From an uncultured Opitutia bacterium (GTDB taxonomy: Bacteria > Verrucomicrobiota > Verrucomicrobiia > Opitutales > Opitutaceae), in NCBI GenBank assembly GCA_903827245.1, contig CAIKHO010000044.1:1-44216 (forward strand): DNA of 44,216 nt, in the 5' to 3' direction. The position numbers and the translations under genes were made by a program. The first letter of the stretch is position 1. Each line of letters opens with the position of its first letter. Shown here in pieces: positions 23,337 to 43,680 of this stretch. Under the pieces are notes generated by a model, which was given only the letters and a program-made list of their open reading frames with translations, made no database searches and had not been told where the DNA came from.

Positions 23337-23409
23337 GTAGGGCCGGACCTTGGTCCGCGCCTTCCCCGGTTCCGATCCCAGAGAGGCATCGACCAAGGTC
23401 GAGCCCTAC
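23337..23409. repeat. GTAG-footed inverted hairpin doublet 1
   Basis: The left unit is 23337-23360: GTAG, then the hairpin CGGACC-TT-GGTCCG at 23344-23357. The right unit is 23386-23409 in inverse orientation, hairpin TCGACC-AA-GGTCGA at 23389-23402, ending CTAC. The two stems differ by paired, compensating changes, so pairing is kept. It lies between rng and the DUF4256 gene. Confidence 0.85.
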
Positions 23410-23464
23410 CACGCACCGAAATTATTATCTCGAATCCATACCTCACACCTCTCGCATTCCTCCC

Positions 23465-24037
23465 ATGAAAAGCACCGACCCAAAAAAATCGCTCCCGCCC
23501 AAGCAGCGCGACGACCTCCTCGCCGTGTTGAAAACCCGGTTCGAAAAAAACCTGAACCGTCACAAGGGCCTCGCCTGGGAAAAAGTCGCAGCCCGGCTGG
23601 AAGCCCGCAGCGAAAAGCTATGGTCGCTTCATGAAATGGAAAAAACCGGCGGCGAGCCGGATGTGGTCGGTCACGACAAAACGACGGGCGAATGCCTCTT
23701 TGTGGATTGCTCGGCGGAAAGCCCCGCCGGCCGCACGAGCCTCTGCTACGACCGCGCCGCGTTGGATTCGCGGAAGGAATTCAAGCCGAAGAACAGCGCG
23801 ATGGACCTGGCCGCGGCCATGGGCATCGAACTCCTGACGGAGGAGCAATATCTCGACCTGCAGCAGCTGGGAAATTTCGACACGAAATCCTCAAGCTGGG
23901 TGAAAGCGCCGGCGGAGATGAGAAAACTCGGCGGCGCCCTCTACGGCGACCGCCGCTTCGGCCGGGTCTTCATCTACCACAACGGCGCCCAGTCCTACTA
24001 CAGCGGCCGCGGCTTCCGCGGAGCACTCAGGGTCTGA
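23465..24037 (+). CDS. DUF4256 domain-containing protein
   Basis: 190-residue soluble protein covering the whole DUF4256 family length. Typical stretches are RFEKNLNRHKGLAWEKV (about 25-41), LEARSEKLWSLHEMEKTGGEPDVVG, GECLFVDCSAESPAGRTSLCYDRAAL, and the C-terminal GGALYGDRRFGRVFIYHNGAQSYY. There is no signal peptide or membrane segment. No function is established for the family as far as I know. Start is the ATG at 23465. It ends convergently with the toxin-antitoxin pair, with 31 bp between. Confidence 0.88.
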   Translation: MKSTDPKKSLPPKQRDDLLAVLKTRFEKNLNRHKGLAWEKVAARLEARSEKLWSLHEMEKTGGEPDVVGHDKTTGECLFVDCSAESPAGRTSLCYDRAALDSRKEFKPKNSAMDLAAAMGIELLTEEQYLDLQQLGNFDTKSSSWVKAPAEMRKLGGALYGDRRFGRVFIYHNGAQSYYSGRGFRGALRV

Positions 24038-24068
24038 TCTAGATCCGAAACGGTACCGGCGGCCGATC

Positions 24069-24362
24069 CTACCTCCGCTTCAAGCCGTGGCGCGGTTCAC
24101 GATGGTGGTGCCGGACAACAAGAATACGGACCGTGTCGCCGTGAATCCGATAAAGGAAATGAAAAGGAAAGCGCTCGAGGTTGGCGCGGCGGAGGTCGCC
24201 CTCAACCGGATGGAATCGTGAGGGGTTTTCCAGCGCCAAAGCTACATGGACCATGAACTCGTCGAAGAAAGCGTCGCCCAATCCGGGCCCGCCAACCTCA
24301 TCGTAATAGTCCAGAACCGCGGAGACGTCGCCCTGAACGCTCCGGTGATAAATCAGCCTCAT
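24069..24362 (-). CDS. RelE/ParE-family toxin
   Basis: 97-residue basic protein with the RelE/ParE fold pattern: MRLIYHRSVQGDVSAVLDYYDE (first strand and helix hairpin), a mid-chain ALALENPSRFHPVEGDLRRANLERFPFHFLYRIHGDTVRILVVRHHHREP giving the three-strand sheet, and a basic C-terminus. Many such toxins poison gyrase or cleave ribosome-bound mRNA; the target here cannot be told. Its ATG overlaps the antitoxin stop by 4 bp (ATGA), so the antitoxin is made first, the usual order. Confidence 0.87.
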   Translation of the reverse strand: MRLIYHRSVQGDVSAVLDYYDEVGGPGLGDAFFDEFMVHVALALENPSRFHPVEGDLRRANLERFPFHFLYRIHGDTVRILVVRHHHREPRHGLKRR

Positions 24363-24583
24363 CGTTTTCGGGCAGCGGCGATAGTGTCCCGAAATTGTGT
24401 GTCGGTGAGACCAGCAGAGGGGTTTGCGTCCAAATCGGCGTCGCGTCGCCTGGCTTCGGCGACACCACCATCGGCATCAGCCAGAACGGGAGGCAGAGTG
24501 TCGAGCAGCCGCGCGACCAAGATAGCACGTTCGCCTTCCGGCAAGTCGCCGGCCTGTTGTTCCAATTCCTGCAGGCGCGTCAT
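24359..24583 (-). CDS. Addiction-module antitoxin
   Basis: 74-residue acidic helical protein. The N-terminal half LQELEQQAGDLPEGERAILVARLLDTLPP is typical of the short addiction-module antitoxin family paired with RelE/ParE toxins (LPxxERxxLxxxLLxSL pattern). The second half RRRDADLDANPSAGLTDTQFRDTI is the toxin-wrapping acidic tail. No separate DNA-binding domain is evident. Start is the ATG at 24583; it is overlapped by the toxin gene at its end. Confidence 0.85.
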   Translation of the reverse strand: MTRLQELEQQAGDLPEGERAILVARLLDTLPPVLADADGGVAEARRRDADLDANPSAGLTDTQFRDTIAAARKR

Positions 24584-25132
24584 GCGGGGAACGTAGTCAG
24601 CACCGGACCTGAATCAATGGCCGAGTTTCGTCGGAGGTCGGCGAGACCGAGAGTGGGGGCAGCCCGACGGGGTCAGGCCGCCAGAAATATAATCCATGCG
24701 GAACAGACCGATCAGCTCGACGTTCAACGGGGTTCCCATCCTGAAATGTAATCGCACTGCTATGCGGATTACGTGGGACTAAATCTCCCGAGTTCGGGCT
24801 CAGCCAACAATTGAATGAGGGCGATTATAACTCTGGCAGCCTGACCCCGTCGGCTTGCTCCGCATACCTAAAATGAATAGCGACCGATCCGACGGGGTCG
24901 AGCCGCTAGTTCTCAATTCCGATTGAAGTCAGCGTCTTCCTTTGCCGAGCGAGAAAAATTGAGCAGTAGCGGCTCGACCCCCTTAACAGCCCCTGACGTC
25001 TTCGGCCTGACTTCGACTTGTCCCTTCGATCGGCGCGGAGTCATGGGCTGGTCAAACGGGCATTTCGGGTTCGACGCCTTCCGGGCCCGGGCTTAGCCCT
25101 GACGCCACCCCTCCGTCACAGCTCCTTTACCC
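24584..25132. repeat. Gap with two inverted-repeat pairs upstream of the GH35 gene
   Basis: About 550 bp without a credible gene. Pair one is 24661-24685 and 24832-24855, with arms containing GACGGGGTCAGGC and its complement. Pair two is 24891-24918 and 24957-24982, with arms containing GGGGTCGAGCCGCTA and its complement, ending in CTCAATT. Both pairs share a GACGGGGTC core. Immediately after, 24990-25007 reads CCCCTGACGTCTTCGGCCT, and its inverse occurs downstream of the GH35 gene at 27545-27562. The DNA between is noticeably less GC-rich than the neighbouring genes. Confidence 0.7.
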
Positions 25133-27478
25133 ATGAAAAAATTGTCGTTGCCGGGCGTGATCGCCGCGCTGGCCCTGTTGTTTCCACTGGCCATGCCGCT
25201 GTGCGCCGAGTCCGTGCCGGCCGCGCACACGTTTGGGATCGGCGAGAAGGATTTCCTGCTCGACGGGCGCCCGCTGCAGATCCGGTGCGGCGAGATCCAT
25301 TTTGCGCGCGTGCCGCGGGAGTACTGGCGGCAGCGGTTGCAGCTCTGCCGGGCGATGGGCCTGAACGCGGTCTGCGCCTACCTGTTCTGGAATTTTCACG
25401 AATGGGAGCCGGGGCATTACGACTGGGACGGCCAGGCCGACGCGGCGGAGTTCTGTCGCATCGCGCAGGAGGAAGGCCTCTGGGTCATCCTGCGCCCGGG
25501 CCCGTATGCCTGCGCCGAGTGGGAGGGCGGCGGACTGCCGTGGTGGCTGCTGAAGAACCCGGACATCAAGCTGCGGACGTCCGATCCCGCCTTCATGGGT
25601 CCCGCGACCGCCTGGCTGAAGGAAGTCGGGCGGGTTCTCGGTCCCCTGCGGGTCACGCGCGGCGGTCCAATCCTGATGGTGCAGGTGGAGAACGAATATG
25701 GCTCGTTTGGCAAGGACGCCGCCTACATGGGCGCGCTGCGGCAGACGCTGCTGGACGGCGGCTTCGACGTGCCGCTGTTCGCCTGCAACCCGCCGGGCGC
25801 CCTGCGCAACGGGTACCGCAGCGACCTCTTCCAGGTCGTGAACTTCGGCCGCGACCCACAGGCGGGTTTCAAGGCCCTGCGCGCCGTGCAGCCCGCGGGC
25901 CCGCTGATGTGCGGCGAGTTTTATCCCGGCTGGTTCGACACCTGGGGCGCGCCGCACCACCTCGGCGACACGCCGCGTTACCTCGCCGACCTCGAGTCCA
26001 TGCTCGCCCAGGGCGCGTCGTTCAGCATCTACATGGCGCACGGCGGGACGACCTTCGGGATGTGGTCGGGCACCGACCGGCCGTTCAAGCCCGACACCAG
26101 CAGCTACGATTACGACGCGCCGATCAGCGAGGCCGGCTGGACCACGGAGAAGTTCAACCAGACCCGTGCGCTCATCACGAAATACCTCCCGCCCGGCGAA
26201 ACCCTGCCCGTGCCGCCGGCCGCGTACCCAGTGGCGACCGTGCCCGCGTTCGCCCTCACGGAACGTGCGGCGCTCTTCGACAACCTCCCTGTCCCAGTCA
26301 ATGACACGGCGCCGCATAACATGGAGGCTTACGATCAGGGCCGCGGCTGCATCTTGTACCGCACCACGCTGCCTGCGGGCCCGGCGGTGATGCTGGAGAC
26401 CGGACCCGCCCGCGACTTCCTGTGGGTTCGGCTGGATGGCGTCCAGATCGGCGTCCTGGACCGCCGGCTCCGTCGCGCACAGGTGAAAATCCCGGCCCGC
26501 ACCGCGCCGGCCCGGCTCGACCTGCTGGTGGAGACCGCCGGGCACGTGAACTATGGGAACGAGATCCACGATCGCAAGGGCCTGCCGGCCGGGGTGCGCT
26601 TCACCGGCGCGCCGGAGGTGGCGGCGGGACCATGGCAGGTCTATGCACTGCGCCTCGATGCCGCCGAACTCGCCGGCCTGCGCTGGACGAAAGACGCGGT
26701 GCCGGGCCCGGCGTTCTGGCGCGGCAGCTTCACGGTGGATCACCCGGCGGACACGTTCCTTGACCTCCGCAGTTGGGGCAAGGGGGTGGTCTGGATCAAC
26801 GGCCGCTGTCTTGCGCGTTACTGGAACATCGGCCCGACGCAGACCGCCTACGTTCCGGGCGCGTGGCTGCGGGCGGGACGCAACGAGGTGGTGGTGCTCG
26901 ACCTCCTCGGCCCCACGGCGCCGGTGATGGCCGGGCTGGAGCAGCCGATCCTCGACCAGCTCCGACCCGAACTCGATTTCGCGCGGAAACCCGGCCCGAA
27001 AGGGCGCCTGATGCTCGAAGGACTCAAGCCGGTGCAGGCCGGTTCGTTCGCGCCCGGGCCCGACGCGCAGGAAGTGCGCTTCGGCGGACCGGTGAGCGGC
27101 CGGCAGTTCTGCCTCGAGGCGTTGAACGCGCAGGATGGCCAGGCGATCGCGGCCGTCGCAGAACTCGATCTGCTCGATCCGGCGGGGAATCCGATCTCCC
27201 ATTTCGACTGGCAGATCGCCTACGTTGACAGCGAGGAAATGGCGGGCGAGGACGGTTCGGCGTCGAACGCGATCGATGGCCAGACGGCCGACGCCTGGCT
27301 CACCGCTGCGGGCGTGGCGGTCCCGGGATTTCCGCACCGCCTGATCATCGACCTCGGCACCAATACGCGCATCGGCGGTTTCCGCTACACGCCGCGCGCC
27401 GGATCCAATGCGCCGGGCCGGATCAAGGATTACCGCGTGTTTGTCGGCGACAACCTGGTCGAGACCGGGGCACCCTGA
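25133..27478 (+). CDS. Secreted beta-galactosidase, GH35, with C-terminal discoidin-like domain
   Basis: 781-residue exported glycosidase that should remove terminal beta-galactose from plant or host glycans. The signal peptide is about residues 1-25 (cut near LCAES). The GH35 barrel covers about 33-350, with the acid/base Glu188 in VQVENEYGSF and the nucleophile Glu262 in CGEFYPGWFDTWG. Substrate-site stretches include YLFWNFHEWEPG and RPGPYACAEWEGGG. Beta-sandwich domains follow, including WGKGVVWINGRCLARYW and the GH35 jelly-roll motifs. The last 110 or so residues (about 670-781) look like an F5/8 type C/discoidin module, IDGQTADAWLT with a short end at VETGAP. Start is the ATG at 25133. 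The gene is flanked by related repeats. Confidence 0.92.
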   Translation: MKKLSLPGVIAALALLFPLAMPLCAESVPAAHTFGIGEKDFLLDGRPLQIRCGEIHFARVPREYWRQRLQLCRAMGLNAVCAYLFWNFHEWEPGHYDWDGQADAAEFCRIAQEEGLWVILRPGPYACAEWEGGGLPWWLLKNPDIKLRTSDPAFMGPATAWLKEVGRVLGPLRVTRGGPILMVQVENEYGSFGKDAAYMGALRQTLLDGGFDVPLFACNPPGALRNGYRSDLFQVVNFGRDPQAGFKALRAVQPAGPLMCGEFYPGWFDTWGAPHHLGDTPRYLADLESMLAQGASFSIYMAHGGTTFGMWSGTDRPFKPDTSSYDYDAPISEAGWTTEKFNQTRALITKYLPPGETLPVPPAAYPVATVPAFALTERAALFDNLPVPVNDTAPHNMEAYDQGRGCILYRTTLPAGPAVMLETGPARDFLWVRLDGVQIGVLDRRLRRAQVKIPARTAPARLDLLVETAGHVNYGNEIHDRKGLPAGVRFTGAPEVAAGPWQVYALRLDAAELAGLRWTKDAVPGPAFWRGSFTVDHPADTFLDLRSWGKGVVWINGRCLARYWNIGPTQTAYVPGAWLRAGRNEVVVLDLLGPTAPVMAGLEQPILDQLRPELDFARKPGPKGRLMLEGLKPVQAGSFAPGPDAQEVRFGGPVSGRQFCLEALNAQDGQAIAAVAELDLLDPAGNPISHFDWQIAYVDSEEMAGEDGSASNAIDGQTADAWLTAAGVAVPGFPHRLIIDLGTNTRIGGFRYTPRAGSNAPGRIKDYRVFVGDNLVETGAP

Positions 27479-27484
27479 AGGAGC

Positions 27485-27665
27485 CGCATGCAGCTAGAGG
27501 GCCTGTCGAGGGGGTCGCGTCTCTACTTCTTAATTCCAGGCGCGAGGCCGAAGACGTAAGGGCCCGACATATGATAAATCTCTCGGCGGCCTGGTCAGGT
27601 CACCATGGGACTTTGAAATAGCCTGTCCCTTACCAGAAAATCCCCTTACTCCTTATGCTACCCCC
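27485..27665. repeat. Repeat-bearing gap between the GH35 and GH51 genes
   Basis: The 187 bp hold a GTCGAGGGGGTCGCG segment (about 27504-27520) resembling the GGGGTCGAGC arms upstream of GH35, and AGGCCGAAGACGTAAGGG at 27545-27562, the near-inverse of 24990-25007. The rest (27563-27665) is plain and less GC-rich and must carry the GH51 promoter. I cannot define its boxes. Confidence 0.6.
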
Positions 27666-29738
27666 ATGAAACTGACGCCCATGTCCCCCACCTGTCTTCC
27701 CCGTCTTCTGCAAATCCTGCCGGTGTTATTGGCCGCCGCCTGTGGCGTGATGGCTGGGGAGGCCGCCGCTCCCTCGCCGACCATCACGATTCATGCCGAT
27801 CAGATCAAAGGGCCGTCCAGCCCGATGCTCTACGGCATCATGACCGAGGAGATCAATTACTCCTACGACGGCGGGCTCTATGCCGAGCTCGTGCAGAACC
27901 GCGCCTTCCTGGACAACGCCGACAGCCCCGTGCACTGGTCGCTCGTCCAGGACACCGGCGCGGCTGGCACCATCGCCCTCGATAAGACCCAGCCGCTGAA
28001 CGACGCGCTGCCGGTCAGCCTCAAGCTCGAGATCACGGCCGGCGGCGCCCAGCAGCGCGCCGGCATCGCGAACGACGGCTACTGGGGCATCGCCGTCCGT
28101 CCCGCCACGGCGTATCGCGCCTCCTTCTACGCCAAGGCCGCGCCCGGCTTCTCCGGGCCGCTCACCGTGTCGCTCGAGAACAACGACGGCTCCACCGTGT
28201 TTGCCTCGGCCAATGTCACCGGCGTCACCGGTGCTTGGAAAAAATACGAGGTGAAGCTCACCACCGGCCGCGGCTTCCAGCCTTCGGCGACCAACCGCCT
28301 CGCCATCCGCGCCAGCGCTCCCGGCACGCTGTGGTTCGGCCTCGTCTCGCTTTTCCCGCCGACGCTCAACAACCGCCCGAACGGTCTGCGTCCCGACATC
28401 ATGGCGCTCCTCGCCGAGTACAAGCCTGCGTTCCTACGCTTTCCGGGCGGCAATTATCTCGAGGGAAATGACATCAAGAATTACTTCAAATGGAAGCAGA
28501 CGCTCGGCGACCTTTCCCAGCGTCCGGGCCACATGAGCCCGTGGCGCTACCGCTCCAGCGACGGCATGGGCCTGCTGGAATATCTCGAATGGTGCGAGGA
28601 CCTGAAGATGCAGCCGCTGCTGGCGGTTTTCGCCGGGCTCCTCCTCGGCCAAGGCGGCGAGATTCTCCCGGGCGAAGCCCTCCAGCCCTACGTGCAGGAG
28701 GCCCTCGACGAAATCGAGTACGTCACCGGCGACACCAGCACCAAGTGGGGTGCTGAGCGCGCCAAGGACGGCCACCCCGCGCCCTTCAAGCTCACCTATG
28801 TCGAGGTCGGCAACGAGGACTGGCGCGGCGACTACAACGGCCGTTTCAAGCAGATCCACGACGCCATCAAGGCGAAGTATCCCAACCTGCAGCTCATCGA
28901 CTCCTCCATCCGTGGCGGCGTCGGTGCCAACGGCCGCCTCACCAGCCGCGTGACCGATCTCACCGCGGACGTGCATGATCATCACCTCTACACCAATTCC
29001 GAGCTTCAGTCGGAGTTCAGCTCGACCAGCTACGACAACTATGACCGCAAAGGCCCGAAGGTATTCGAGGGCGAATGGGCCACGCGCGTGCCCGCCAACC
29101 AGCCGACGCCGAATTTCGCCGGAGCCCTCGGCGACGCCGCCTACATGACCGGCTTCGAGCGCAATTCCGACATGGTCATCATGGCGGGCTACGCGCCGCT
29201 GTTCGTGAATATCAGCAACCCCGCCGGTCGCGGCACCCCCGGCTCGTCCATGCAGTGGCCGGTGAACCTGATCGGCTTCAACGCGCTCGGCAGCTACGGC
29301 TCGCCGTCCTTTTACGCCCAGGTCATGTTCAACAACAACCGCGGCGACCAGATCCTCACCTCGAGCGTGAGCGGCGTCGGCACCCGCACCTGGCAGGCGC
29401 CCGCCGGCCGCGATGGCGGCCAGCCCCCGCCGGCACGCGAGGTCCCGACCCTGTTCCACGCCGTCACCCGTGACAGCAAGACCGGCATCATTTACCTGAA
29501 AGTGGTCAATCCGCTGGGCACGCCGCAAGACGTGCACGTGGACATCCAGGGTGCCCGTTCCGTGGCGGCGAAGGGCGAATCCGTGATCATGAAGGCAGGC
29601 AGCCCCGAGGAGACGAACTCCATCGCCGAGCCGAAAAAGATCGTGCCCGTCACCGCCGCCGAAACCGGCTTTGGTGCCAGCTTCACCCGCACCCTCGCGC
29701 CCTACTCGATCAACATACTGAAGCTCTCGAGCAACTAG
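27666..29738 (+). CDS. Secreted alpha-L-arabinofuranosidase, GH51
   Basis: 690-residue exported enzyme releasing L-arabinofuranose from arabinan, arabinoxylan or arabinogalactan side chains. An N-terminal hydrophobic signal (about 10-32) contains AAACG, which is close to a lipobox but lacks the usual Leu at -3. An N-terminal carbohydrate-binding-like beta sandwich (about 85-230) precedes the GH51 barrel, with FRFPGGNYLEGND-like sequence FLRFPGGNYLEGND at about 257-270. The acid/base Glu384 is in YVEVGNED and the likely nucleophile Glu470 in VFEGEWAT. A C-terminal beta domain ends in FTRTLAPYSINILKL. Start is the ATG at 27666. With the preceding GH35 gene it makes a secreted side-chain-trimming pair. 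Confidence 0.92.
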   Translation: MKLTPMSPTCLPRLLQILPVLLAAACGVMAGEAAAPSPTITIHADQIKGPSSPMLYGIMTEEINYSYDGGLYAELVQNRAFLDNADSPVHWSLVQDTGAAGTIALDKTQPLNDALPVSLKLEITAGGAQQRAGIANDGYWGIAVRPATAYRASFYAKAAPGFSGPLTVSLENNDGSTVFASANVTGVTGAWKKYEVKLTTGRGFQPSATNRLAIRASAPGTLWFGLVSLFPPTLNNRPNGLRPDIMALLAEYKPAFLRFPGGNYLEGNDIKNYFKWKQTLGDLSQRPGHMSPWRYRSSDGMGLLEYLEWCEDLKMQPLLAVFAGLLLGQGGEILPGEALQPYVQEALDEIEYVTGDTSTKWGAERAKDGHPAPFKLTYVEVGNEDWRGDYNGRFKQIHDAIKAKYPNLQLIDSSIRGGVGANGRLTSRVTDLTADVHDHHLYTNSELQSEFSSTSYDNYDRKGPKVFEGEWATRVPANQPTPNFAGALGDAAYMTGFERNSDMVIMAGYAPLFVNISNPAGRGTPGSSMQWPVNLIGFNALGSYGSPSFYAQVMFNNNRGDQILTSSVSGVGTRTWQAPAGRDGGQPPPAREVPTLFHAVTRDSKTGIIYLKVVNPLGTPQDVHVDIQGARSVAAKGESVIMKAGSPEETNSIAEPKKIVPVTAAETGFGASFTRTLAPYSINILKLSSN

Positions 29739-29754
29739 GCGCGTGGTTGGCAGA

Positions 29755-29929
29755 GGATCGGAGGGCCAGAAGGTCGGAAGGTCAGAAGCTCAGAGGGTCG
29801 AGGGCTTGGTCCTAACATCCGGCCTTCTGATCATCCGGTCCTCCGACCATCCGCCAGGTGGCCGCCGACCTCCGGGCGGCGGATGGAACCACTCGCAGGT
29901 CAACCGCGCCCGGAGGTCACGGTCCACCT
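29755..29929. repeat. Two consecutive inverted repeats after the GH51 gene
   Basis: Just after the GH51 stop comes a purine-rich stretch (29755-29808) of tandem AGAAGGTCGGAAGGTC-like units. Its inverse (CTTCTGATCATCCGGTCCTCCGACC) is at about 29824-29850. A second pair follows: 29856-29878 and 29907-29929, 19 of 23 positions complementary (AGGTGG...GACCTCCGGGCG). The left unit of the second pair can fold on GCCGCC/GGCGGC. No gene is seen in 29739-29984. Confidence 0.75.
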
Positions 29930-29984
29930 CATTCCAACTGCATCACTATGGCTGAGCGTCCGAGGGAGCACGCGAGGTGCACCC

Positions 29985-31292: not shown

Positions 31293-31639
31293 GACGGCGT
31301 GCCCCAGGTCCACTTTCCCGGCGGATCTTCGGCCACCTTGAAGGCCGACGCACGACGACGCACGCGACCGCGCAGCTTCAGCTGGGCGATCGGGCTGGGC
31401 GGCGGCTCAGGAATGAACACTTCGAAATGCCCCGCAAGATCGAGGGCCCGGCAGACACGGACAAACCCCGCGAGCTGGATCGATTCGCCCGCCTCCAGGC
31501 GCTCGACGGTGCGTTTCGAAACGCCGGCTTTGTCGGCCAGCCCGGCCTGCATCAGATTCCGATCCAGCCGGATCTTCGCCAGCCGCTCGCCCAATTCCCC
31601 CAAGATCGCCTTATCGGTCATCTCATTCGTCATTTTCAT
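31289..31639 (-). CDS. hipB: HipB-like XRE-family antitoxin/repressor
   Basis: 116-residue DNA-binding protein. A single HTH_3/XRE domain (about 14-68) contains LGERLAKIRLDRNLMQAGLADKAGVSKRTVERLEAG, a textbook Cro/C1 helix-turn-helix. The C-terminal tail is rich in Pro and basic residues (KLRGRVRRR), possibly for HipA contact. Start is the ATG at 31639; a second at 31633 is possible. It is the first gene of the hipBA operon and probably represses it through the inverted sites just upstream. Confidence 0.9.
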   Translation of the reverse strand: MKMTNEMTDKAILGELGERLAKIRLDRNLMQAGLADKAGVSKRTVERLEAGESIQLAGFVRVCRALDLAGHFEVFIPEPPPSPIAQLKLRGRVRRRASAFKVAEDPPGKWTWGTPS

Positions 31640-31824
31640 TACGCGCCAAATCTGGCGAATAGAGCCCGAATATCAACATTAATCGTCTATTATGGCGATT
31701 TGAACTATTCATATAACTCGCCATTTATGACGTATTATAGCGAAAATCTCAATCAATCCGCCAGAAAAGACGAATTACGCGAAAACGTTGTCCGCAGCGC
31801 CGAGTCAGGGGCTAATTATCCGAT
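31640..31824 (-). promoter_or_regulatory. AT-rich hipBA control region with inverted operator-like sites
   Basis: This 185-bp stretch is strikingly AT-rich against its GC-rich surroundings. TTATGGCGA (31690-31698) and TCGCCATTT (31718-31726) form an inverted pair with 19 bp between. Further partial matches (GGCGAAT near 31662, TATAGCGAAA near 31736) follow. In characterised hipBA systems HipB binds such inverted sites upstream of its own gene. The assignment here is by position and symmetry. TATTAT and TATAAC sequences in the same stretch could supply -10 boxes. Confidence 0.6.
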
Positions 31825-32045
31825 ATCGGGTCGTGGTACAGTTTGCGATAGATCACTCCAATCCGGTTTCGCGCAGAGGCGCAAAGTCGCGAAGCGGGAA
31901 CATGGAGAATGGAATCAATGCTCGAAACGGAGGAATCAGGAAATCCGGCATCCGCACAGGCCCGGACCATCGCTCCTGATTCCTCGGTCTTTTTGGCTTT
32001 CTCTGCGCCCCAGCGCCTCTGCGTGAAACTATACCACTACCCGAT
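31825..32045. repeat. Nested inverted-repeat element, copy C, with terminal inverted repeats
   Basis: The 221-bp element is bounded by 20-bp ends, 31825-31844 and 32026-32045, which match at 18 of 20 positions (ATCGGGT-GTGGTA-AGTTT). The middle arms GGTTTCGCGCAGAGGCGC (31865-31882) and GCGCCTCTGCGTGAAAC (32013-32029) are the same family as in copies A and B. The inner core is different: a perfect 12-bp pair GAGGAATCAGGA (31930-31941) with TCCTGATTCCTC (31974-31985). The right end includes the stop codon of the aldehyde dehydrogenase gene. Confidence 0.88.
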
Positions 32046-33617: not shown

Positions 33618-33629
33618 GGTAAAGTGGGA

Positions 33630-34502: not shown

Positions 34503-34562
34503 GGGAGAATTCTTAATGGCGCCGGGGCCAAGGGACGATGATCGGCGAAAACAGCAAGGTGG

Positions 34563-35558: not shown

Positions 35559-35574
35559 GGGGTATTCCGCCGAG

Positions 35575-35644
35575 GTAGGGGCGTCCCTTGCGGACGCCCG
35601 CGGCTTCGCCGCCTCCGGAGGGCGTCGTCAAGCAACGCCCCTAC
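35575..35644. repeat. GTAG-footed inverted hairpin doublet 2
   Basis: The left unit is 35575-35599: GTAG and a perfect 8-bp stem GGGCGTCC/GGACGCCC with a 5-nt loop. The right unit is 35620-35644, the inverse, with GGGCGT/ACGCCC stem and CTAC end. The arms are complementary at 21 of 25 positions. The central 20 bp hold a GCGGCTTCGCCGC hairpin. It fills the 100 bp between the sugar-acid dehydratase and FAH-family genes within the operon. Confidence 0.88.
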
Positions 35645-35658
35645 GCTGGGTTTTCGGT

Positions 35659-36837: not shown

Positions 36838-36855
36838 GGAGATGGATTGGGTAAA

Positions 36856-36937
36856 AATCTTTCTCGTTCCTCTTTCTCTTTCTCTTTCGGCAGGACGACC
36901 GGGAGAAAGATTAAGAGAAAGAGGAAAGAGAAAGATT
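36856..36937. repeat. Pyrimidine-purine inverted repeat inside the operon
   Basis: 36856-36880 (AATCTTTCTC, then TTCCTCTTTCTCTT) and 36913-36937 are complementary at 24 of 25 positions, with a 32-bp loop. One arm is almost pure pyrimidine, the other pure purine. The right arm runs into the MFS gene's TAA stop codon (36936-36938), and the element fills the gap to the dehydratase gene. Confidence 0.9.
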
Positions 36938-38279
36938 ATTCATGCGGGATAGTTGAAAGGGGAAGCGGACGGATGCGCGGGATGCCCACGCACAGGACGA
37001 TGAACGCGAGAACGTGCAGTGAGCCCGCAATGATGAGCACGGGCGTGAAGCTGGAGCCGTGGTCGCGCAGGTAGCCGACGACCTGGCCGAACGCCACGCC
37101 GCCCATGGCCCCGCCGAGACCGACGAGGCCGGCGAGCGTGCCGACGGCGCGCTTGGGAATCATGTCGGTGGGAAGGATCATCACGAGCGTGGACCACGAT
37201 TGCTGCCCGAAGAACGCCAGGCTGAAAATGAAAATCACCCAGCCGACGGAATGCAGCTGCGGCACCAGCATGACCCACGGCATGAGCGCGGCGCTCGCCG
37301 CGAGGGCGAGCTTGCGCGCCCCATTGACGGCCATCCCGCGCCGCAGCAGCCAGCTCGACAGCGCGCCTCCGCAGAGACAGCCGACGCCCGAGGCGGCATA
37401 GGGAATCCAGCCGATGCGGCCGGCGGTCTTCAGGTCGAGGTTGAAGGCTTCGAGCAGGAATTTCGGCAGCCAGAAAAGATAGAAATACCACGCGCCATCG
37501 CTGAGGAATTTGGCGAGGATCACGGCCCACGTCTCCCGAAAGCCCAGGATGGCCGAAAGCGGAATCGCGGGCGGGGCGATGCCATCCGGGGGTCGAACGC
37601 GTTCCAACTCGGAGTCCCCCTGCATCACCGGCTTCAAGTGCTCGCGCTCCGCCGCCTTCAGGCCCGGATGCTGTTCCGGCGGCTGGTAGTCGAACCACCA
37701 CCAGACCGTCCAGAGCAGGCCGAAGCCCCCGGTGAGAATAAAGACCCAGCGCCACGGGGCGAGGCCGAGCCAGTCCAGGTTCGTGAGCACGAAAACGATG
37801 AGGGGCGGCGCCACCACCCCGCCGACGGCCGTGCCGCCGTTGATGATGCCCATCGCGATGGAGCGTTCGCGGACCGGAAACCATTCCGTGACCACACGCG
37901 TGGCCGCGGGGAAGCCGCCGCCCTCCCCCATGCCCAGCAGGAGCCGGCTCGTCGCCAGCATCAACACGCCGAAGCCCAGGCCAAAGACCGACGGCATGCC
38001 GTAGTTACCCGCAAACGCATGGCTGGCGCACGCCAGCGACCAGAACACCATGATCACCGTGAACCCGCGGCGCGTGCCGAGCCAGTCGAGCAGCCGGCCG
38101 CCACCGAGGTACATGAGCCCGTAGGTGACGAGGAAGGCGGAATCGAGAAACGCCTTAACCTGGTTTGAAACCGGGATGTCCTGGCTGATCGAGCTCAACG
38201 CCCACGGCAGCGTCTGGCGGTCGAGATAGCTGATCGCGATGGCGACGCTGACCAGGATGGCGATTCTCCAGCGGAGCAT
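36936..38279 (-). CDS. MFS transporter, anion:cation symporter (hexuronate/galactonate-type)
   Basis: 447-residue major-facilitator protein with 12 membrane segments and the usual central loop (about 200-235). Family marks are the N-terminal YLDRQTLPWALSSI (first helix, D and R of the ACS family), GGRLLDWLGTRRG (helix 2-3 loop with the RGF/R motif), and GMGEGGGFPAATRVVTEWFPVRERSIAMGI, a strong ACS-family signature. Such carriers import sugar acids with protons. Its position between the sugar-acid dehydratase and the beta-propeller gene supports uptake of the operon's substrate. Start is the ATG at 38279. Confidence 0.87.
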   Translation of the reverse strand: MLRWRIAILVSVAIAISYLDRQTLPWALSSISQDIPVSNQVKAFLDSAFLVTYGLMYLGGGRLLDWLGTRRGFTVIMVFWSLACASHAFAGNYGMPSVFGLGFGVLMLATSRLLLGMGEGGGFPAATRVVTEWFPVRERSIAMGIINGGTAVGGVVAPPLIVFVLTNLDWLGLAPWRWVFILTGGFGLLWTVWWWFDYQPPEQHPGLKAAEREHLKPVMQGDSELERVRPPDGIAPPAIPLSAILGFRETWAVILAKFLSDGAWYFYLFWLPKFLLEAFNLDLKTAGRIGWIPYAASGVGCLCGGALSSWLLRRGMAVNGARKLALAASAALMPWVMLVPQLHSVGWVIFIFSLAFFGQQSWSTLVMILPTDMIPKRAVGTLAGLVGLGGAMGGVAFGQVVGYLRDHGSSFTPVLIIAGSLHVLAFIVLCVGIPRIRPLPLSTIPHE

Positions 38280-38303
38280 GGGGGAAGAGGCAAAACAGGC
38301 CGC

Positions 38304-39365
38304 CTAGCGCGTCAGCTCGCCCTTTTCCGGAACGCCGGGTTCATCGAGCAGCTGGATCGAAGAGGCCGGGCCGAGGTCGGGGTCCTTCCATTCGCTCAGG
38401 GCCCAGACCACCTTCTTTTCGGGCGTCACCTCCAGCACATGGACCGAGCCCGGCCACGTGTTTGGATCCTTCAGGTCGGACGGGCACCAGTTGCAGATCA
38501 CGGTGTTGCCGTTCGCGAGGCGGTTCACTTCCTGAAAAATGAAGCATTTGTACTCGGGCACGTCCTTCTCGGAGAACTGCCACACCACGTCGCCCTGCTG
38601 GTTCACCTCAATCACGGTGTTGTGGTAGGAGGAGATGAGGGTGTTCCCGTTCTTGAGGCGCACCGCGTCCCATGGCCCGTTGGTGGCGTAGGACCAGATT
38701 TCCTTTCCGTCCTGGTCGTACTCGACGACACGTTTGTCGTCGAGGTGCGCGGCGAGGTAGGTGCCGGCCTGCGTCAGGCGGACGCGCCGGAATTGCAGGT
38801 GCGGGCTTTTGTCGGGATGCGGCGTGGGCAGTGCGAGTTCCTTCTCGGTCCTGCCGGTGACCGTGTTGATGAGCATCAGCTTCGCCGGCTTGCCGTTCAC
38901 CACGAGGAGCACGCGGTCGAGGCCGATCGGCTGGATCGAATGGATTTCCGTGTCCTTCGGCGCGACGATGTCCCAGACGATCTTCTTGTCGGGCGTGATC
39001 TCACTGGCGCCGACCTTGCGGCAGAAGACGATGTTGCCGTTCGAAAGCATGGTGGCATCGCCCAGCTCCTGGAGCGTGCCGCTGGCGTCGTTGATCGGAA
39101 TCGAATACGACCAGGCCACCCGGCCGTTGCGCACCACGTAGAGGGTCTGGTCCTTTTTCCGGTGATCCCACTCGCCGGTGTAGAGGAAGGGGTGCTGGTC
39201 CAGACCCTTGCCGGGCAGCACGGCGGGAGCCATGGGACCGGTGGGCGCGGCCGGAACGGGAGAAGCGGGTTGATCCGCCGCAGGCAGGCTGGCCGGAACG
39301 GCCATGAGAATCAGGCCTGCGGCCACGCCGAGGCCCGGACAGGCAAGGGGGTTCTTAAGGGGCAT
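38304..39365 (-). CDS. Exported PQQ-like/arylsulfotransferase-like beta-propeller protein
   Basis: 353-residue protein with a signal sequence (KNPLACPGLGVAAGLILMAVPASLPAA, cut near 29), then a Pro-rich linker, then repeated blades. The blade motif recurs three times as a short run LxNGNxxxC/S: LSNGNIVFC, LKNGNTLIS and LANGNTVIC, each followed by a DxxGxxVW-type strand (KKIVWDI, GDVVWQF, KKVVWAL). The fold family covers periplasmic enzymes and binding proteins; no catalytic residue can be assigned. As the first structural gene after the regulator it could be a surface or periplasmic sugar-acid binding or processing protein, such as a lactonase. That role is only inference. Start is the ATG at 39365. 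Confidence 0.78.
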   Translation of the reverse strand: MPLKNPLACPGLGVAAGLILMAVPASLPAADQPASPVPAAPTGPMAPAVLPGKGLDQHPFLYTGEWDHRKKDQTLYVVRNGRVAWSYSIPINDASGTLQELGDATMLSNGNIVFCRKVGASEITPDKKIVWDIVAPKDTEIHSIQPIGLDRVLLVVNGKPAKLMLINTVTGRTEKELALPTPHPDKSPHLQFRRVRLTQAGTYLAAHLDDKRVVEYDQDGKEIWSYATNGPWDAVRLKNGNTLISSYHNTVIEVNQQGDVVWQFSEKDVPEYKCFIFQEVNRLANGNTVICNWCPSDLKDPNTWPGSVHVLEVTPEKKVVWALSEWKDPDLGPASSIQLLDEPGVPEKGELTR

Positions 39366-39473
39366 GCACCCGCAGCCTTAACGCGATCCGCGGCCAAATA
39401 AACCCGATTATTGCGCATTTGATTTCGAAAATTGCGCAGGAGCGGAATCGCGGGCCTACCCATCCTTAGCTCT

Positions 39474-39544
39474 CCCTCGGATTGCCTCCTGTAAACCTTC
39501 CGATCCGAACCGTTCCCACAGGAGACAGGCCGAGGCCGATCCGA
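39474..39544 (-). repeat. 70-bp dispersed repeat, copy 2
   Basis: Near-identical inverse of 1332-1401: CTCGGATTGCCTCCTGTAAA, CTTCCGATCC, then CACAGGAGACAGGC and GGCCGATCCG. It lies about 20 bp downstream of the AraC-type regulator's stop and upstream of the beta-propeller gene. The CTCCTGT and ACAGGAG halves can form a hairpin. Confidence 0.85.
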
Positions 39545-39565
39545 GACTGGGCATTGGCGACGGTC

Positions 39566-40807
39566 TCAGCGGCCCACGCCAAAGCGGCGCCGGTATTCGC
39601 CGGGGGGCAGGCCGGTTTCCGTCTTGAAGACGACACTGAGATATTCCGGCTCGAAGCCGGCGCGGCCGGCGATCTCCCAGACCGGCAGCTCCGTGCCGAC
39701 CAGCAGTTCCTTCACGCGGTTCAATTGCACGCGCAGGATCTCCTCGCGCGGCGTGCGACCGAGCAGCTTGCGGAAACGCGTCTCCAGCGCCCGCCGCGCC
39801 ATCGGGCAGTGGCGCAGCACCTCGCTGACCCGGATGCCTTCGCAGGCGTGCTCGCGGATGTAGCGCAGGGCGCCCGCGATCTTCGGGTCCGCCACCGCGA
39901 GGATGTCCGTGCTCTGGCGGGTCGCGACGTCCACCGGAGGAATCAGCCGGGCCGTCGGCGGGATTTTCTCCCCTTGCATCATCAGCGAGAGCAGGGCCGC
40001 AGCCTCCCACCCCGCGCGCCGCGGGTTCAGCGTCACGCTCGACAACGGCGGCGGGGACAGCACGCACAGGACCTCGTCGTTGTCCACGCCCAGCACCGCC
40101 ACCTCCTCCGGCACGGCCAGGCCCACGCGCCGGCACGCCTCCAGCACCTGCTGGCCGCGATTGTCGTAGCAGGCGAAGACGGCGGCTGGCCGCGGCAGCC
40201 CGGCCAGCCACGTCCCGATCTCATCCACCTCGGCATCGCCGTCCAGCGCCCGGCGGACGGGTTTGTAGAAATGACACCGGTGGCCCGAGCTCCGCACGAG
40301 CAGGCTGAACTGTTCGCCCCGGCGGTTGGACCAGCTGAAGCGGGGATTCCCGCAGAAGGCGAAATGCCGGAAACCGCGCTCGAGGAAATGCTGCGCGGCC
40401 ATCCGCGCGATCGCGGTGTCGTCCGCCTTCACCCAAGGCGCGCGCGGCAGCAGCCGCGACGGTGTCAGGTCGACCGCCGGCACCGACATCCGCCCCACCG
40501 CCCGGGCAATGCGGCGGTTCTCGCCGCGGACAATGATCCCCTGTCCGTCCCACGACGCCAGCCAAGGCGGCGGACGGTCCGCGATGCCGAGCTCCGCATA
40601 ATGCACCTGCCAAGGACCGTGACTGAGGATGTACTCGCCGATGCCCACGAGCAGACCCCGCGCGTAGGCATTGCTGGCCTCGAACAACAGCGCGACCTTC
40701 GGCAGCGCCGGCCGGCGCGAAACCGGCCGCGCTCCGGGGGATTTGCCGGTTTTGCGTCCGGCCGGTGTCGTCTGGGTCAAGGTGGGCAAAATGGTTTGAC
40801 GGTTCAC
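39566..40807 (-). CDS. AraC-family regulator with LacI-like sensor domain (XylR type)
   Basis: 413-residue regulator if started at GTG 40807. An N-terminal periplasmic-binding-protein-like sensor domain (about 25-285) begins PKVALLFEASNAYARGLLVGIGEY and includes ADDTAIARMAAQHFLERGFRHFAFCG. A C-terminal AraC HTH pair ends RKLLGRTPREEILRVQLNRVKELLVGTELPVWEIAGRAGFEPEYLSVVFKTETGLPPGEYRR. This is the XylR-like architecture for sensing pentoses. The ORF remains open to 41134 and an ATG exists at 40906, but that would leave only 15 bp to the divergent vapB start. GTG 40807 is a compromise and uncertain. It is the likely operon regulator. Confidence 0.85.
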   Translation of the reverse strand: MNRQTILPTLTQTTPAGRKTGKSPGARPVSRRPALPKVALLFEASNAYARGLLVGIGEYILSHGPWQVHYAELGIADRPPPWLASWDGQGIIVRGENRRIARAVGRMSVPAVDLTPSRLLPRAPWVKADDTAIARMAAQHFLERGFRHFAFCGNPRFSWSNRRGEQFSLLVRSSGHRCHFYKPVRRALDGDAEVDEIGTWLAGLPRPAAVFACYDNRGQQVLEACRRVGLAVPEEVAVLGVDNDEVLCVLSPPPLSSVTLNPRRAGWEAAALLSLMMQGEKIPPTARLIPPVDVATRQSTDILAVADPKIAGALRYIREHACEGIRVSEVLRHCPMARRALETRFRKLLGRTPREEILRVQLNRVKELLVGTELPVWEIAGRAGFEPEYLSVVFKTETGLPPGEYRRRFGVGR

Positions 40808-40920
40808 CCGACGCAAACGCAGGCCCGGACCGAAGGCGAGGCTTTGGCACGCGGCCGCAAACCTGCCCCACCCATTTCCACCGGCTTGACCGTGCAGATC
40901 ATTCATGCACCGTCGTCTGC

Positions 40921-41118
40921 ATGAGAACCACCCTGAACCTGGACGAAGCCCTGCTGGCCGAGGCCGGCGACTATGCCGGACTGAAGGAAAAAACGGCGCT
41001 GTTGCACGAGGGCCTGCGCGCGCTGATCCAGCGCGAGGCGTCAGCCCGCCTGGCGGCCCTCGGCGGGCGCGATCGCAAGGCCGCCGCCGCCCCGCGCCGC
41101 AAGGCGGCCCGGCCATGA
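40921..41118 (+). CDS. VapB-like antitoxin
   Basis: 65-residue antitoxin. The first strand RTTLNLDEALLAEA is the ribbon-helix-helix start typical of VapB (M-R-T-T-L-N-L-D). ALLHEGLRALIQRE is the second helix, and a basic Ala/Arg-rich tail follows. The ATG at 40921 is directly supported by this motif. It overlaps vapC by 4 bp (ATGA), so the two are coupled. Confidence 0.88.
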   Translation: MRTTLNLDEALLAEAGDYAGLKEKTALLHEGLRALIQREASARLAALGGRDRKAAAAPRRKAARP

Positions 41119-41489
41119 AGGTGCTGGTCGACACCTCGGTGTGGATCGACCATTTCCATCGCGCGGATCCGCAGCTTCAGGCGCTGCTGCTGGGAGGACA
41201 GGCGTGGACGCATACCGTCGTCATCGGCGAGCTTGCCGCCGGCCGGCTCCGGCAGCGCAACGAGATCCTGCTCCATCTGCAAAAACTTCCGCGCGGGGAC
41301 GAGATCGACCTCGGCGAGGGGCTGCACCTGGTGGCGGAGCACGAATTGTGGGGACGCGGGCTGTCGTGGTCCGACATCCAGTTGCTCGCCGCCGCCAGCA
41401 TCGACCGGCTCACCGTCTGGACCCGTGACCGGGCGCTGGCCCGTGCGGCCACGGAGCTGGGCTTGGCCCACGTGGCAAATGCGGTGTAA
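41115..41489 (+). CDS. VapC-family PIN-domain toxin
   Basis: 124-residue PIN-domain ribonuclease. The four acidic positions are visible: Asp6 (LVDTSVWID), Glu39 (VIGELAAG), Asp87 (WSDIQLL) and Asp105 (TRDRAL). VapC toxins cleave tRNA or rRNA, and VapB blocks them. Length and spacing are normal. Start is the ATG at 41115, overlapping the vapB stop. Confidence 0.92.
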   Translation: MKVLVDTSVWIDHFHRADPQLQALLLGGQAWTHTVVIGELAAGRLRQRNEILLHLQKLPRGDEIDLGEGLHLVAEHELWGRGLSWSDIQLLAAASIDRLTVWTRDRALARAATELGLAHVANAV

Positions 41490-41553
41490 TCCTCCCGGCT
41501 GGCCGCCGGAGAGGCGCTCCATGCCGCGATGATTAAGCGGGGGCATTTATCTC

Positions 41554-41606
41554 GTAGGCCGCCTGCTTGCAGGCGCTCTGAGAGCGCAAGCAAGCTCGCA
41601 GCCCAC
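41554..41606. repeat. GTAG/GTGG-footed inverted hairpin doublet 3
   Basis: The left unit is 41554-41579: GTAG, then a perfect 7-bp stem CGCCTGC-TT-GCAGGCG. The right unit is 41581-41606, the inverse, stem GCAAGC with GCTCGC (one G-T pair), ending CCAC, so its foot reads GTGG. It lies between vapC and the esterase gene. The rest of 41490-41759 shows only an AGGAG ribosome-binding site ahead of the esterase start. Confidence 0.85.
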
Positions 41607-41759
41607 CAAGATTCCTCGAGCTGACCCACTACCGAGCAGGCGGTCGATGCCATCGCAGAGCCGAAAGGCCGTTCCTCCGTTTTCAAACCGCTGCCGGCCC
41701 CGGTGCTTGTGCCGGAGCCCGGGCGGGTTCTACAATTCCGTCCCAGCAGGAGCTTTCTT

Positions 41760-43571
41760 ATGGAAAAATCACCCGACCCCCGGCCGAGCAATCCCTCCAG
41801 TCACCCCGCCCCAACCTCGATCGAACGGCGTACCTTTGTTAAGGGCATCGCAACCTTGGGGGCCGGCCTGGCCACGGCCGCCGTTCTGCCAAGAAGCACG
41901 CAGGCCCAGGCGGCCGGGCCGCAGCCGTCCGCCGGCGCCGCAGCCCCGGCGGCTCCCGCGACTTCCGGCCGCCAGCAAGGCGTCGCCGCCTCTGACGCCA
42001 CCACCGTGGTCGAGACCACGGCCGGTAAAATCCGCGGCTTCCGGCGCGACGGCGTCTACAGTTTCAAGGGTGTTCCCTATGGCGCCTCCACGGCCGGCCC
42101 GGCCCGGTTCATGCCGCCGGGCAGGCCCGAGCCCTGGGCGGGAATCCGCAATGCCCTGCACTACGGGCGGGTCTGCCCGATGTACGACGCCTCGCGCGCG
42201 AACACCGACGGACACAACCGGGCGGACAAGGACGAGGACTCGTTTCTGCTTTACCGCGGCTACTCCGAGCAGGTGCCCGGCGAGGACTGCCTGCGCGCGA
42301 ACATCTGGACGCCCGAGATCAACGGCACGCGCAAGCGCCCCGTGATGGTTTACATGCACGGCGGCGGATTCACCATCGGCTGCAGCAACGACCTGCTCTC
42401 GTACGACGGCGAGAATCTCGCCCGCAATCACGACGTGGTGGTGGTGACGCACAACCACCGCCTGAATGCGTTCGGCTACCTGAATCTCGCCGAATTGGGC
42501 GGACCCGAGTACGCGAGCTCCGCGAACGCCGGCATGCTCGATATCGTGGCCGTGCTCGAATGGGTCCGGGACAACATCGCGCGCTTCGGCGGCGACCCGG
42601 ACAATGTGCTCGTCTTCGGCCAGTCCGGCGGGGGCGGAAAGGTCGCCACGCTGCTGGCCATGCCCGCCGCCCAGGGGCTGTTCCATCGCGCGGCCATCCA
42701 GAGCGGCACGTATCTGAAAATGAGCACACCGGAGGAGTCGGGCCAGCTGACGGCGGCGGTGCTGGCGGAACTCGGCCTGTCAAAATCGCAGCTCGCCGAA
42801 CTGCACACCCTCCCGGTCGACCGCCTCGTGGCGGCGGTCGGCGCGGCGTCGCGGAAATTCGCGCGCCCCGGAAGATCCGGGCCGCTCCGCCGGGATTTCG
42901 GCGACATCGCCTTCCGGCCGACGGTGGACGGCAAGATCCTGCCAAGCCATCCGTTCGATCCCGTGGCCCCGGCCATCTCCGCGCACGTGCCGCTCCTGAC
43001 CGGGACCTGCGTGCACGAGTCGGTGAACGGCATCGGCAATGCCGAGGTGGACACAATGACCGAGGAGGAGATGGGCCGGCGGATGCGCACAGCCTACGGG
43101 GACAAAGCCCAGGCGATCATCGACGCCTACCGCCGCGAATATTCAAGAGGCAAACCCTTCGACATTTACGCCGCGATCGCCGCGGCGCCAGCCAGGCAGG
43201 TGGTGTTCACGCAAGCCGCCCGGAAAGCGGCGCTGGGCGGGGCACCGGCCTACGAGTATTTATTCGCATGGCGGACGCCGATGCTCGATGGGCGGCCCGG
43301 CACGTATCACAGCTGCGAGATCCCGTTCGTCTTCGACAATGCCGAGCTTTGCGACCACTATACCGGCCGCACGCCGGAGGCGCTCGCGCTCGCGAAACAG
43401 GTCAGCGGAGCCTGGGTCAATTTCGCGCGGACCGGGAATCCCAATCACGCCGGGCTGCCGCACTGGCCGGCCTTCACGCCGGAAAAATGCGAGACGATGA
43501 TCTTCGACACCGTCTGCACCGCGCGAAATGACCCCGAGGGTGAGGGCCGGCGGCTCGCGGCGGCGGTTTGA
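41760..43571 (+). CDS. Type B carboxylesterase, Tat-exported
   Basis: 603-residue alpha/beta-hydrolase of the carboxylesterase B family. The N-terminus has a twin-arginine signal ([21 protein letters not shown], about 21-42), so export as a folded enzyme is likely. Catalytic elements are the nucleophile elbow [10 protein letters not shown], the oxyanion HGGGF in [10 protein letters not shown], the acidic member in [11 protein letters not shown] and the His in [10 protein letters not shown]. The substrate is an ester of unknown type; decorated plant polysaccharides would fit the neighbouring glycosidases. Start is the ATG at 41760, with the ribosome-binding site AGGAG 8-12 nt ahead. The frame is open to 41703 but without such a site. 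Confidence 0.92.
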
Positions 43572-43592
43572 AACGGTTGGGCAGTATAAAAA

Positions 43593-43680
43593 TTGTTGTA
43601 GCCGAGGTCGCTGACCCCGGTTTTGCCATTCTTCAGTCGTGATCTCCCGGCACCGGGGTCGGCGACCCCGGCTACAACAA
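43593..43680. repeat. GTAG-footed inverted hairpin doublet 4
   Basis: Arms 43593-43620 (TTGTTGTAG, then CCGAGGTC-GCT-GACCCCGG) and 43653-43680 (CCGGGGTC-GGC-GACCCCGG, then CTACAACAA) are complementary at 26 of 28 positions. Each arm also folds on itself, the right one with a perfect 8-bp stem. It lies 22 bp after the esterase stop, between convergent genes. Confidence 0.9.

What the first reader, a model, noticed from the sequence alone, without database searches (positions are those of the whole stretch)
23337..43680. Four REPIN-like hairpin doublets that share GTAG feet but carry different palindromes
Four intergenic elements (23337-23409, 35575-35644, 41554-41606, 43593-43680) have one layout: GTAG (GTGG in one arm), a short perfect hairpin, a spacer, then the same unit inverted, ending CTAC or CCAC. 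The palindromes differ entirely between elements (CGGACC-TT-GGTCCG; GGGCGTCC; CGCCTGC-TT-GCAGGCG; CCGGGGTC-GACCCCGG). In doublet 1 the two stems differ by compensating base changes, a sign that pairing matters. Established knowledge: REP elements mobilised by RAYT (IS200-like TnpA_REP) transposases carry a GTAG or GGAG foot beside a hairpin and often occur as inverted pairs (BIME/REPIN). Inference: this genome may hold several coexisting REPIN families. No RAYT gene is in the window.
Basis: partly seen in the sequence, partly recalled or inferred. Interest (0 to 1): 0.75.

Follow-up and report, generated by a model that had tools for sequence, protein, structure and literature searches.

The report
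REPIN hairpin doublets in an Opitutae genome
The four elements look like ordinary bacterial REPINs, tiny hairpin pairs thought to be copied by a known transposase family; mildly odd is that no such transposase could be found in this genome, which still carries several REPIN families.

Summary
E4 is a second type with another loop. The own genome has 20 strict CTTG doublets, reversed control 0; 67 of 150 genomes drawn from the family have them, controls 0. E4-type doublets occur in 22 of 150, controls 0. Foot and loop are fixed while stems change with compensation. In relatives, RAYT (TnpA_REP) genes carry the same kinds of unit: 30 of 44 frames have matching units on both sides, against 0 of 300 random stretches of the own genome, and CTTG/CTCG units go with one RAYT clade. 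The REPIN reading is supported. GTAG REP families with unlike partners, complementary stem changes and RAYTs are published, O. terrae included (PMC3733652), so this is a new member of a known kind. Against the simplest version: no RAYT was found in the own genome (97.4% complete), and E1's subfamily has one strict doublet and the E4 type two places there.

The parts
23337..23409 (.). E1: REPIN with two unlike arms, CTTG-loop type; arms 23337-23361 (+) and 23385-23409 (-), 23-nt spacer; between an RNase E/G-family gene and a DUF4256 gene
   Evidence: same arm pair in three listed doublets of congener G017
35575..35644 (.). E2: REPIN, CTTG-loop type, subfamily GTAGGGGCG; arms 35575-35599 (+) and 35620-35644 (-), 20-nt spacer
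   Evidence: at the matching place congener G017 has a different inverted repeat (by eye)
41554..41606 (.). E3: REPIN, CTTG-loop type, subfamily GTAGGCCGC; right arm has a GTGG foot and a decayed stem; 3-nt spacer
   Evidence: two more strict doublets of the subfamily in the own genome, on C30 and C52
43598..43675 (.). E4: REPIN of a second type, GTAG-CCGGGGTC-GCY-GACCCCGG; left arm has one mismatch
   Evidence: homologous element (84% over 89 nt) beside the same downstream gene in congener G017, where the upstream side differs; the same arm, apart from its loop, flanks a RAYT gene in G135 (L150)
29858..29930 (.).

Best explanation
The elements are REPINs: pairs of REP units in inverted orientation that spread as non-autonomous elements through a RAYT (TnpA_REP, an HUH/Y1 transposase related to IS200/IS605). 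Each unit is a GTAG foot, a stem of about 8 bp and a short loop. For E1-E3 the constant parts are the foot and a CTTG loop, and the stem may change as long as it pairs. I infer that the RAYT clade flanked by such units reads foot plus loop and needs only a paired stem. E4 goes with a different RAYT clade and another loop. RAYTs with such units are present in relatives but not detectable in this genome, so the copies here are most likely leftovers of past activity. Shown: anatomy, copy number, foot and loop conservation, compensated stems, RAYT flanking and clade association in relatives, and an apparent empty site in a congener for one GTGG-type REPIN. Inferred: recognition mode, mobilisation by RAYT, and loss of the RAYT.
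For: Doublets: own 20 strict against 0; 67 of 150 family genomes, control 0 in all 150; E4 type 22 of 150, control 0. Foot: 22 of 30 CTTG hairpins preceded by GTAG/GTGG, against 1 of 115 for other loop orders. Compensation: 117 distinct arms from 99 locally held doublets pair at 7.09 of 8 positions on average, against 5.11 after re-dealing the 3' halves, highest of 1000 shuffles 5.40. RAYT link: 30 of 44 RAYT frames have matching foot-hairpin units on both sides, 27 of them inverted, against 0 of 300 random stretches of the own genome. In a tree of 41 RAYTs, 15 of 17 members of one supported clade have units with a CTTG or CTCG loop and no such loop was seen at the other 24; with the labels (14 of 36) the tree needs 2 changes, against a mean of 11.3 and a minimum of 5 in 300 shuffles. 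Doublets are commoner where a strong RAYT match exists: 60 of 105 against 7 of 45 genomes, p = 2e-6. Proteins: NF047646, REP-associated tyrosine transposase, above cut-off for 4 of 6 tested; best solved structure 4er8, TnpA_REP.
Against: No RAYT in the own genome: 0 matches to PF01797 and 0 to a 16-member RAYT profile, with 24 of 63 first-look candidates scored; of 16 genomes without a profile match only this one (19 doublets) and G100 (1) have CTTG doublets. Several arms do not fold well alone. 14 of 44 RAYT frames had no matching pair of units by the criterion. The 44 come from 18 genomes that I chose mostly for having doublets, and the random control comes from the own genome, not from theirs. 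Units at RAYTs resemble but do not always equal the dispersed ones: the RAYT of congener G061 (L102) has CTCG loops on both sides. L129, outside the clade, has the letters CTTG displaced across loop and stem. Spacers differ strongly between copies with near-identical arms, which simple recent copying of a whole doublet would not predict.
Confidence: 0.9

Rival explanations
1. The elements are kept as RNA structures (terminators, mRNA 3'-end stabilisers), and selection on the RNA fold, not transposition, explains the compensated stems.
For: The four lie between ORFs. By eye, E1 follows a terminator-like hairpin with a T run after the RNase E/G-family gene. E4 has a counterpart beside the same gene in a congener.
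Against: It does not explain GTAG on the 5' side of the arms, a fixed loop, or the same kinds of unit around RAYT genes. Presence at matching sites varies between congeners.
Confidence: 0.07
2. The RAYT is present in the living organism and merely missing from this assembly of 91 contigs, so the population is not orphaned. (This competes with the loss step only, not with the REPIN reading.)
For: Completeness is 97.4%, not 100. Congener G061 has three profile matches, one of them flanked by units close to the E2 subfamily.
Against: No match in 3.55 Mb. Congener G017 (98% complete) has only one, with a stop codon inside the profile match and units of another REP type.
Confidence: 0.35
3. Chance hairpins in a GC-rich genome.
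For: The window is 66% GC, which favours inverted repeats.
Against: 0 doublets for the reversed pattern in all 150 genomes; 0 of 100 shuffles reach the window count.
Confidence: 0.001

Closest known systems
GTAG REP superfamily, including families GTAG-17, -19 and -20 of 'O. terrae' (PMC3733652; passages read; I expand the name to Opitutus terrae from memory)
   Same: GTAG foot, GTGG in one family; stems mostly 6-9 bp; complementary stem changes; dimers of like or unlike units; [quoted passage not shown] RAYT genes flanked by the repeats
   Different: Another organism. The consensus sequences are in a figure that is not held, so whether the CTTG frame equals one of those families could not be checked
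REPINs of Pseudomonas fluorescens SBW25 (PMC3116915; passages read)
   Same: Inverted REP doublets that fold as one hairpin; spacer less conserved than arms; linked RAYTs
   Different: Here fewer strict doublets, more diverse stems, and no RAYT found in the genome
Group 3 TnpA_REP, REPtrons Sm and Mb (PMC8266576; passages read)
   Same: Short REP with intact stem; loop bases are crucial and GTAG matters for cleavage, while most stem letters matter less
   Different: Not shown here that the RAYT clade belongs to group 3; no biochemistry done
E. coli BIME with REPs y, z1, z2 (as described in PMC8266576)
   Same: Unlike REPs combined, as in E1
   Different: E. coli REPs are longer and have a conserved mismatch bulge

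Membership tests
REPIN (REP doublet forming a hairpin) | GTAG or GTGG foot directly 5' of a hairpin | tested here: met
   22 of 30 CTTG hairpins against 1 of 115 controls
REPIN (REP doublet forming a hairpin) | Two units in inverted orientation at short spacing, repeated in the genome | tested here: met
   20 CTTG doublets, control 0; E4 type only 2 places in the own genome, 22 of 150 genomes
REPIN (REP doublet forming a hairpin) | Extragenic location | tested here: inconclusive
   The window elements lie between ORFs; the 331-aa neighbour of E2 and the 191-aa neighbour of E3 have no Pfam match; not tested genome-wide
REPIN (REP doublet forming a hairpin) | Same kind of units flank a RAYT gene in the lineage | tested here: met
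   30 of 44 RAYT frames of relatives; congener G061, L102, with GTAGGGGCGTTCCTCG units
REPIN (REP doublet forming a hairpin) | RAYT in the same genome | tested here: not met
   0 matches; 97.4% complete, so loss and gap cannot be told apart. Not strictly defining: genomes with REPs but no tnpA_REP gene are reported as suspected gene loss (PMC6006769, passages)
REPIN (REP doublet forming a hairpin) | Moves as one unit | tested here: inconclusive
   One apparent empty site in G017, for a GTGG-type doublet, with immediate flanks that align poorly; none resolved for the CTTG type
RAYT (TnpA_REP), for the flanked genes of relatives | HUH motif, tyrosine region, match to the REP-associated tyrosine transposase model | tested here: met
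   Invariant H-x-H, Y at 90% or more and invariant N-P after it in 16 sequences; NF047646 above cut-off for 4 of 6, below for L143 and the 330-aa L113; 4er8 best structure match

The most novel reading that the evidence does not exclude
In this family the REP stem is a nearly free variable: one RAYT clade reads only the GTAG foot and a CTYG loop, so one lineage carries dozens of stem sequences that pair but are otherwise unlike, and a stem-diverse REPIN population can outlast the loss of every RAYT. The genus would then be a natural experiment on REPIN decay: one congener with RAYT and matching units (G061), one with a single RAYT match that holds a stop codon (G017), one without any (own genome).
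Probability: 0.4. Interest if true: 0.45.

Novelty: new member of a known kind. Interest (0 to 1): 0.27.

Why it matters
It extends a well-described mobile-repeat system to a little-studied genus with many stem types and several RAYT clades among its relatives. The pairing of RAYT clade with loop motif gives testable predictions about what TnpA_REP reads, and the genus offers a with/without-RAYT comparison for asking how long REPINs last without their transposase.

Tried and rejected
Led nowhere: a first pattern with wrong spacing (2 matches, reversed control 7); Rfam on the window (only a tRNA) and on a REPIN of G017 whose spacer reminded me, from memory, of part of a cobalamin riboswitch (no such match; only two microRNA models far below their gathering scores, on the palindrome). 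A strict hairpin-doublet finder found only E2 in the window, because it allows no bulge. A search for stem, loop, 'compensat' and similar words in PMC3686654 gave no passage, so I saw only its listing.

Considered and rejected: that the spacer is target DNA caught between two separately inserted arms. Spacers do differ strongly between copies with near-identical arms, but they keep more similarity than shuffled spacers (G016 0.668 against 0.482; G061 0.652 against 0.554; own 0.599 against 0.506), some G016 copies share whole spacers, and the one apparent empty site lacks arms and spacer alike. Spacers of like length and unlike sequence are described (PMC3733652; PMC3116915).

Selections and dropped rows. 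RAYT loci come from 18 of 150 genomes, chosen mostly for having doublets, and 40 of the listed places were fetched beside those returned by searches. Left out of the tree: L131, L118, L115 (broken or fused frames), 41 of 44 kept; L104 was cut to its last 190 residues. In one search counts were typed by hand; 'strong' means a best E-value of about 1e-20 or lower, a cut chosen after seeing the list, with G133 (1.1e-20, 5 doublets) counted as strong. In one search L125 was labelled not CTYG, although one search then showed a CTTG unit beside it. In one search spacers were taken from 20 of 37 doublets of G061, 20 of 40 of G016 and all 20 of the own genome. Part of the 244 kb was chosen because one search had found repeats there. 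Not done: genome-wide test of position, structure prediction, placement of the RAYTs in published groups.
Full report
What was checked. The four elements were read from the window. E1-E3 are exact as described; E4 proper is 43598-43675. GTRGG-N7-CTTG occurs seven times in the window, 0.51 expected, 0 of 100 shuffles with as many. As single-stranded DNA the four elements fold with z-scores of -4.1, -4.8, -2.7 and -9.8 (0, 0, 1 and 0 of 200 shuffles fold as well). Of the arms folded alone, those of E1 (z -2.3 and -3.0) have one bulged base each, E3 left has z -1.4, E3 right hardly folds (z -0.01), E4 left has a mismatch (z -1.7) and E4 right is perfect (z -3.2).

The organism. For an esterase of the window the best named match is a MAG called uncultured Opitutae bacterium Kiruna_bin-10528 (80%), and an Opitutaceae MAG is among the 24 hits, but most of the others are Acidobacteria. 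The Kiruna contig has the same length (109,872) and the same sequence matches as contig C13 of G017, a genome of the window's genus (for lengths of loci and contigs, 36, 42). I therefore infer an Opitutae genome, perhaps Opitutaceae.

Genome-wide. GTRGG-N7-CTTG occurs 184 times in the own genome against 97 for the reversed pattern. The strict inverted doublet occurs 20 times with GTRG feet, reversed control 0 (19 with GTAG feet); by eye 16 belong with E2, 3 with E3 and 1 is E1. In 150 genomes drawn evenly from the family (own included), 67 have strict doublets and the control is 0 in all. E4-type doublets occur in 22 of 150, control 0, with two places in the own genome and one in congener G017. 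A fifth element of the window, 29858-29930, has GTGG feet and 16 listed matching pieces elsewhere in the own genome (capped list).

Foot, loop and stem. To test the foot without requiring it, I collected all hairpins with an 8-bp stem (at most one non-pair) around CTTG in 244 kb of own sequence (window plus ten 20-kb stretches): 22 of 30 are preceded by GTAG or GTGG, against 1 of 115 hairpins for the other eleven orders of the loop letters. To test the stem without requiring it, I took 117 distinct arms from the 99 doublets held locally: they pair at 7.09 of 8 positions on average and 50 pair at all 8; with 3' halves dealt out anew the mean is 5.11, the highest of 1000 shuffles 5.40, and at most 11 arms pair fully. 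With a single fixed 5-nt loop the contrast is weaker, 68% of positions against 54%, because loops of 4 and 5 nt both occur. Related arms count apart, so these are not independent changes.

The enzyme. PF01797 (Y1 transposase) has 0 matches in the own genome and matches in 135 of 150 family genomes. A profile of 16 RAYTs (A1) has 0 in the own genome (24 of 63 first-look candidates scored) and matches in 134 of 150. The aligned proteins have invariant H-x-H and N-P with a nearly invariant tyrosine before it; 4 of 6 tested pass the cut-off of NF047646, REP-associated tyrosine transposase; the best solved structure is 4er8, TnpA_REP. Of 44 RAYT frames, 30 have foot-hairpin units of at least 75% identity on both sides, 27 of these inverted; of 300 random 530-nt stretches of the own genome none has. 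Congener G061 has a RAYT flanked by GTAGGGGCGTTCCTCG units, close to the E2 subfamily but with CTCG loops (L102). G135 has one flanked by the E4 arm apart from its loop (L150). G024 has a RAYT reading frame with a stop inside between two unlike CTTG arms (L131); it and L104 are not among the 30.

RAYT clades. In a tree of 41 RAYTs, 15 of the 17 members of one clade (support 100/98) have units with a CTTG or CTCG loop: nine, five more, and L125; L132 and L135 show none. At the other 24 no unit with such a loop was seen, though L129 has the letters CTTG displaced across loop and stem. With the labels used then (14 CTYG of 36 labelled rows) the tree needs 2 changes, against a mean of 11.3 and a minimum of 5 in 300 shuffles. 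Loop type follows RAYT clade, while stems differ within it.

RAYT and REPINs across genomes. CTTG doublets occur in 65 of 134 genomes with a RAYT-profile match and in 2 of 16 without (p = 0.007); with a stricter, after-the-fact cut, in 60 of 105 against 7 of 45 (p = 2e-6). Genomes are related, so the p values are rough. The own genome is the outlier: no RAYT, 19 doublets. G017 (98% complete) has one profile match, with a stop codon inside (the shorter Pfam match has none), between units of a different REP type (L104).

Age and movement. E4 has a counterpart in G017 beside the same downstream gene (84% over 89 nt; arms and spacer alike by eye), while the upstream neighbour differs, so it probably predates the split of the two species. 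At the places of E2 and E3, G017 has other inverted repeats, for E3 a GTGG-type one (by eye). A GTGG-type REPIN at L240:15776-15868 has an apparent empty counterpart in G017, with immediate flanks that align poorly. Spacers vary far more than arms: in pairs of doublets with arms at least 90% alike, mean arm identity is 0.96, 0.96 and 0.92 and mean spacer identity 0.65, 0.67 and 0.60 in G061, G016 and the own genome, shuffled spacers 0.55, 0.48 and 0.51.

Comparison with what is known. PMC3733652 (passages) describes GTAG-tagged REP families, several in O. terrae, with GTGG feet in one, stems of mostly 6-9 bp, complementary changes, like and unlike dimers, some spacers alike in length but not in sequence, RAYTs flanked by the repeats, and also many intragenic copies in O. 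terrae. PMC3116915 (passages) defines REPINs. PMC8266576 (passages) shows for two group 3 enzymes that loop bases and an intact stem are needed and that stem letters matter less. PMC6006769 (passages) reports subclass-specific REP types and REP genomes without a tnpA_REP gene. PMC8049555 (passages) models REPIN persistence and leaves RAYT loss to an appendix. Most of what is seen here therefore has a precedent. Searches for REP or palindromic repeats with Verrucomicrobia, Opitutaceae or Opitutus terrae listed no paper on this genus that I could recognise; the library lacks most subscription journals.

Verdict. The mildly new parts are the shared CTTG frame with freely varying stems, its link to one RAYT clade, and a multi-family REPIN population in a genome without a detectable RAYT.

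Noticed in passing
   Followed up: partly
window 36853-36940, 39441-39545, 1332-1402, 31820-32040: Further intergenic inverted or dispersed repeats (by eye: AAAGAGAAAGATT type; CTCGGATTGCCTCCTGT type, two copies in the window; GCGCAGAGGCGC type), each with matches elsewhere in the own genome or in congeners. I saw no GTAG foot on them.
   Followed up: partly
window 35559-35658, 36841-36952, 41546-41703; L240 around 7754 and 19189: At these matching intergenic places congener G017 carries a different palindromic repeat from the own genome (by eye), as if the same gaps were filled by different repeat families in related species; at E4 and L240 around 3171 both have the same repeat.
   Followed up: partly
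L292-L311 (G061): Several doublets seem to lie inside a larger inverted repeat (CGGAGA ... TCTCCG on the two sides), as if inserted into the middle of other palindromes (by eye).
   Followed up: no
L272-L283 (G016): A REPIN family in which arms and, by eye, outer flanks are conserved while the 9-10-nt spacer keeps its length but varies in sequence.
   Followed up: partly
L104 (G017:C11): The only RAYT-profile match of congener G017 holds an in-frame stop and lies between GTAGGGCGCGGACTCCG units.
   Followed up: no
L060-L062, L093-L101, L107-L113: A second class of Y1 proteins, mostly about 310-345 aa, is common in the family; the one tested scores below the RAYT cut-off (L113), and 15 of these 19 loci showed no foot-hairpin unit.
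   Followed up: no
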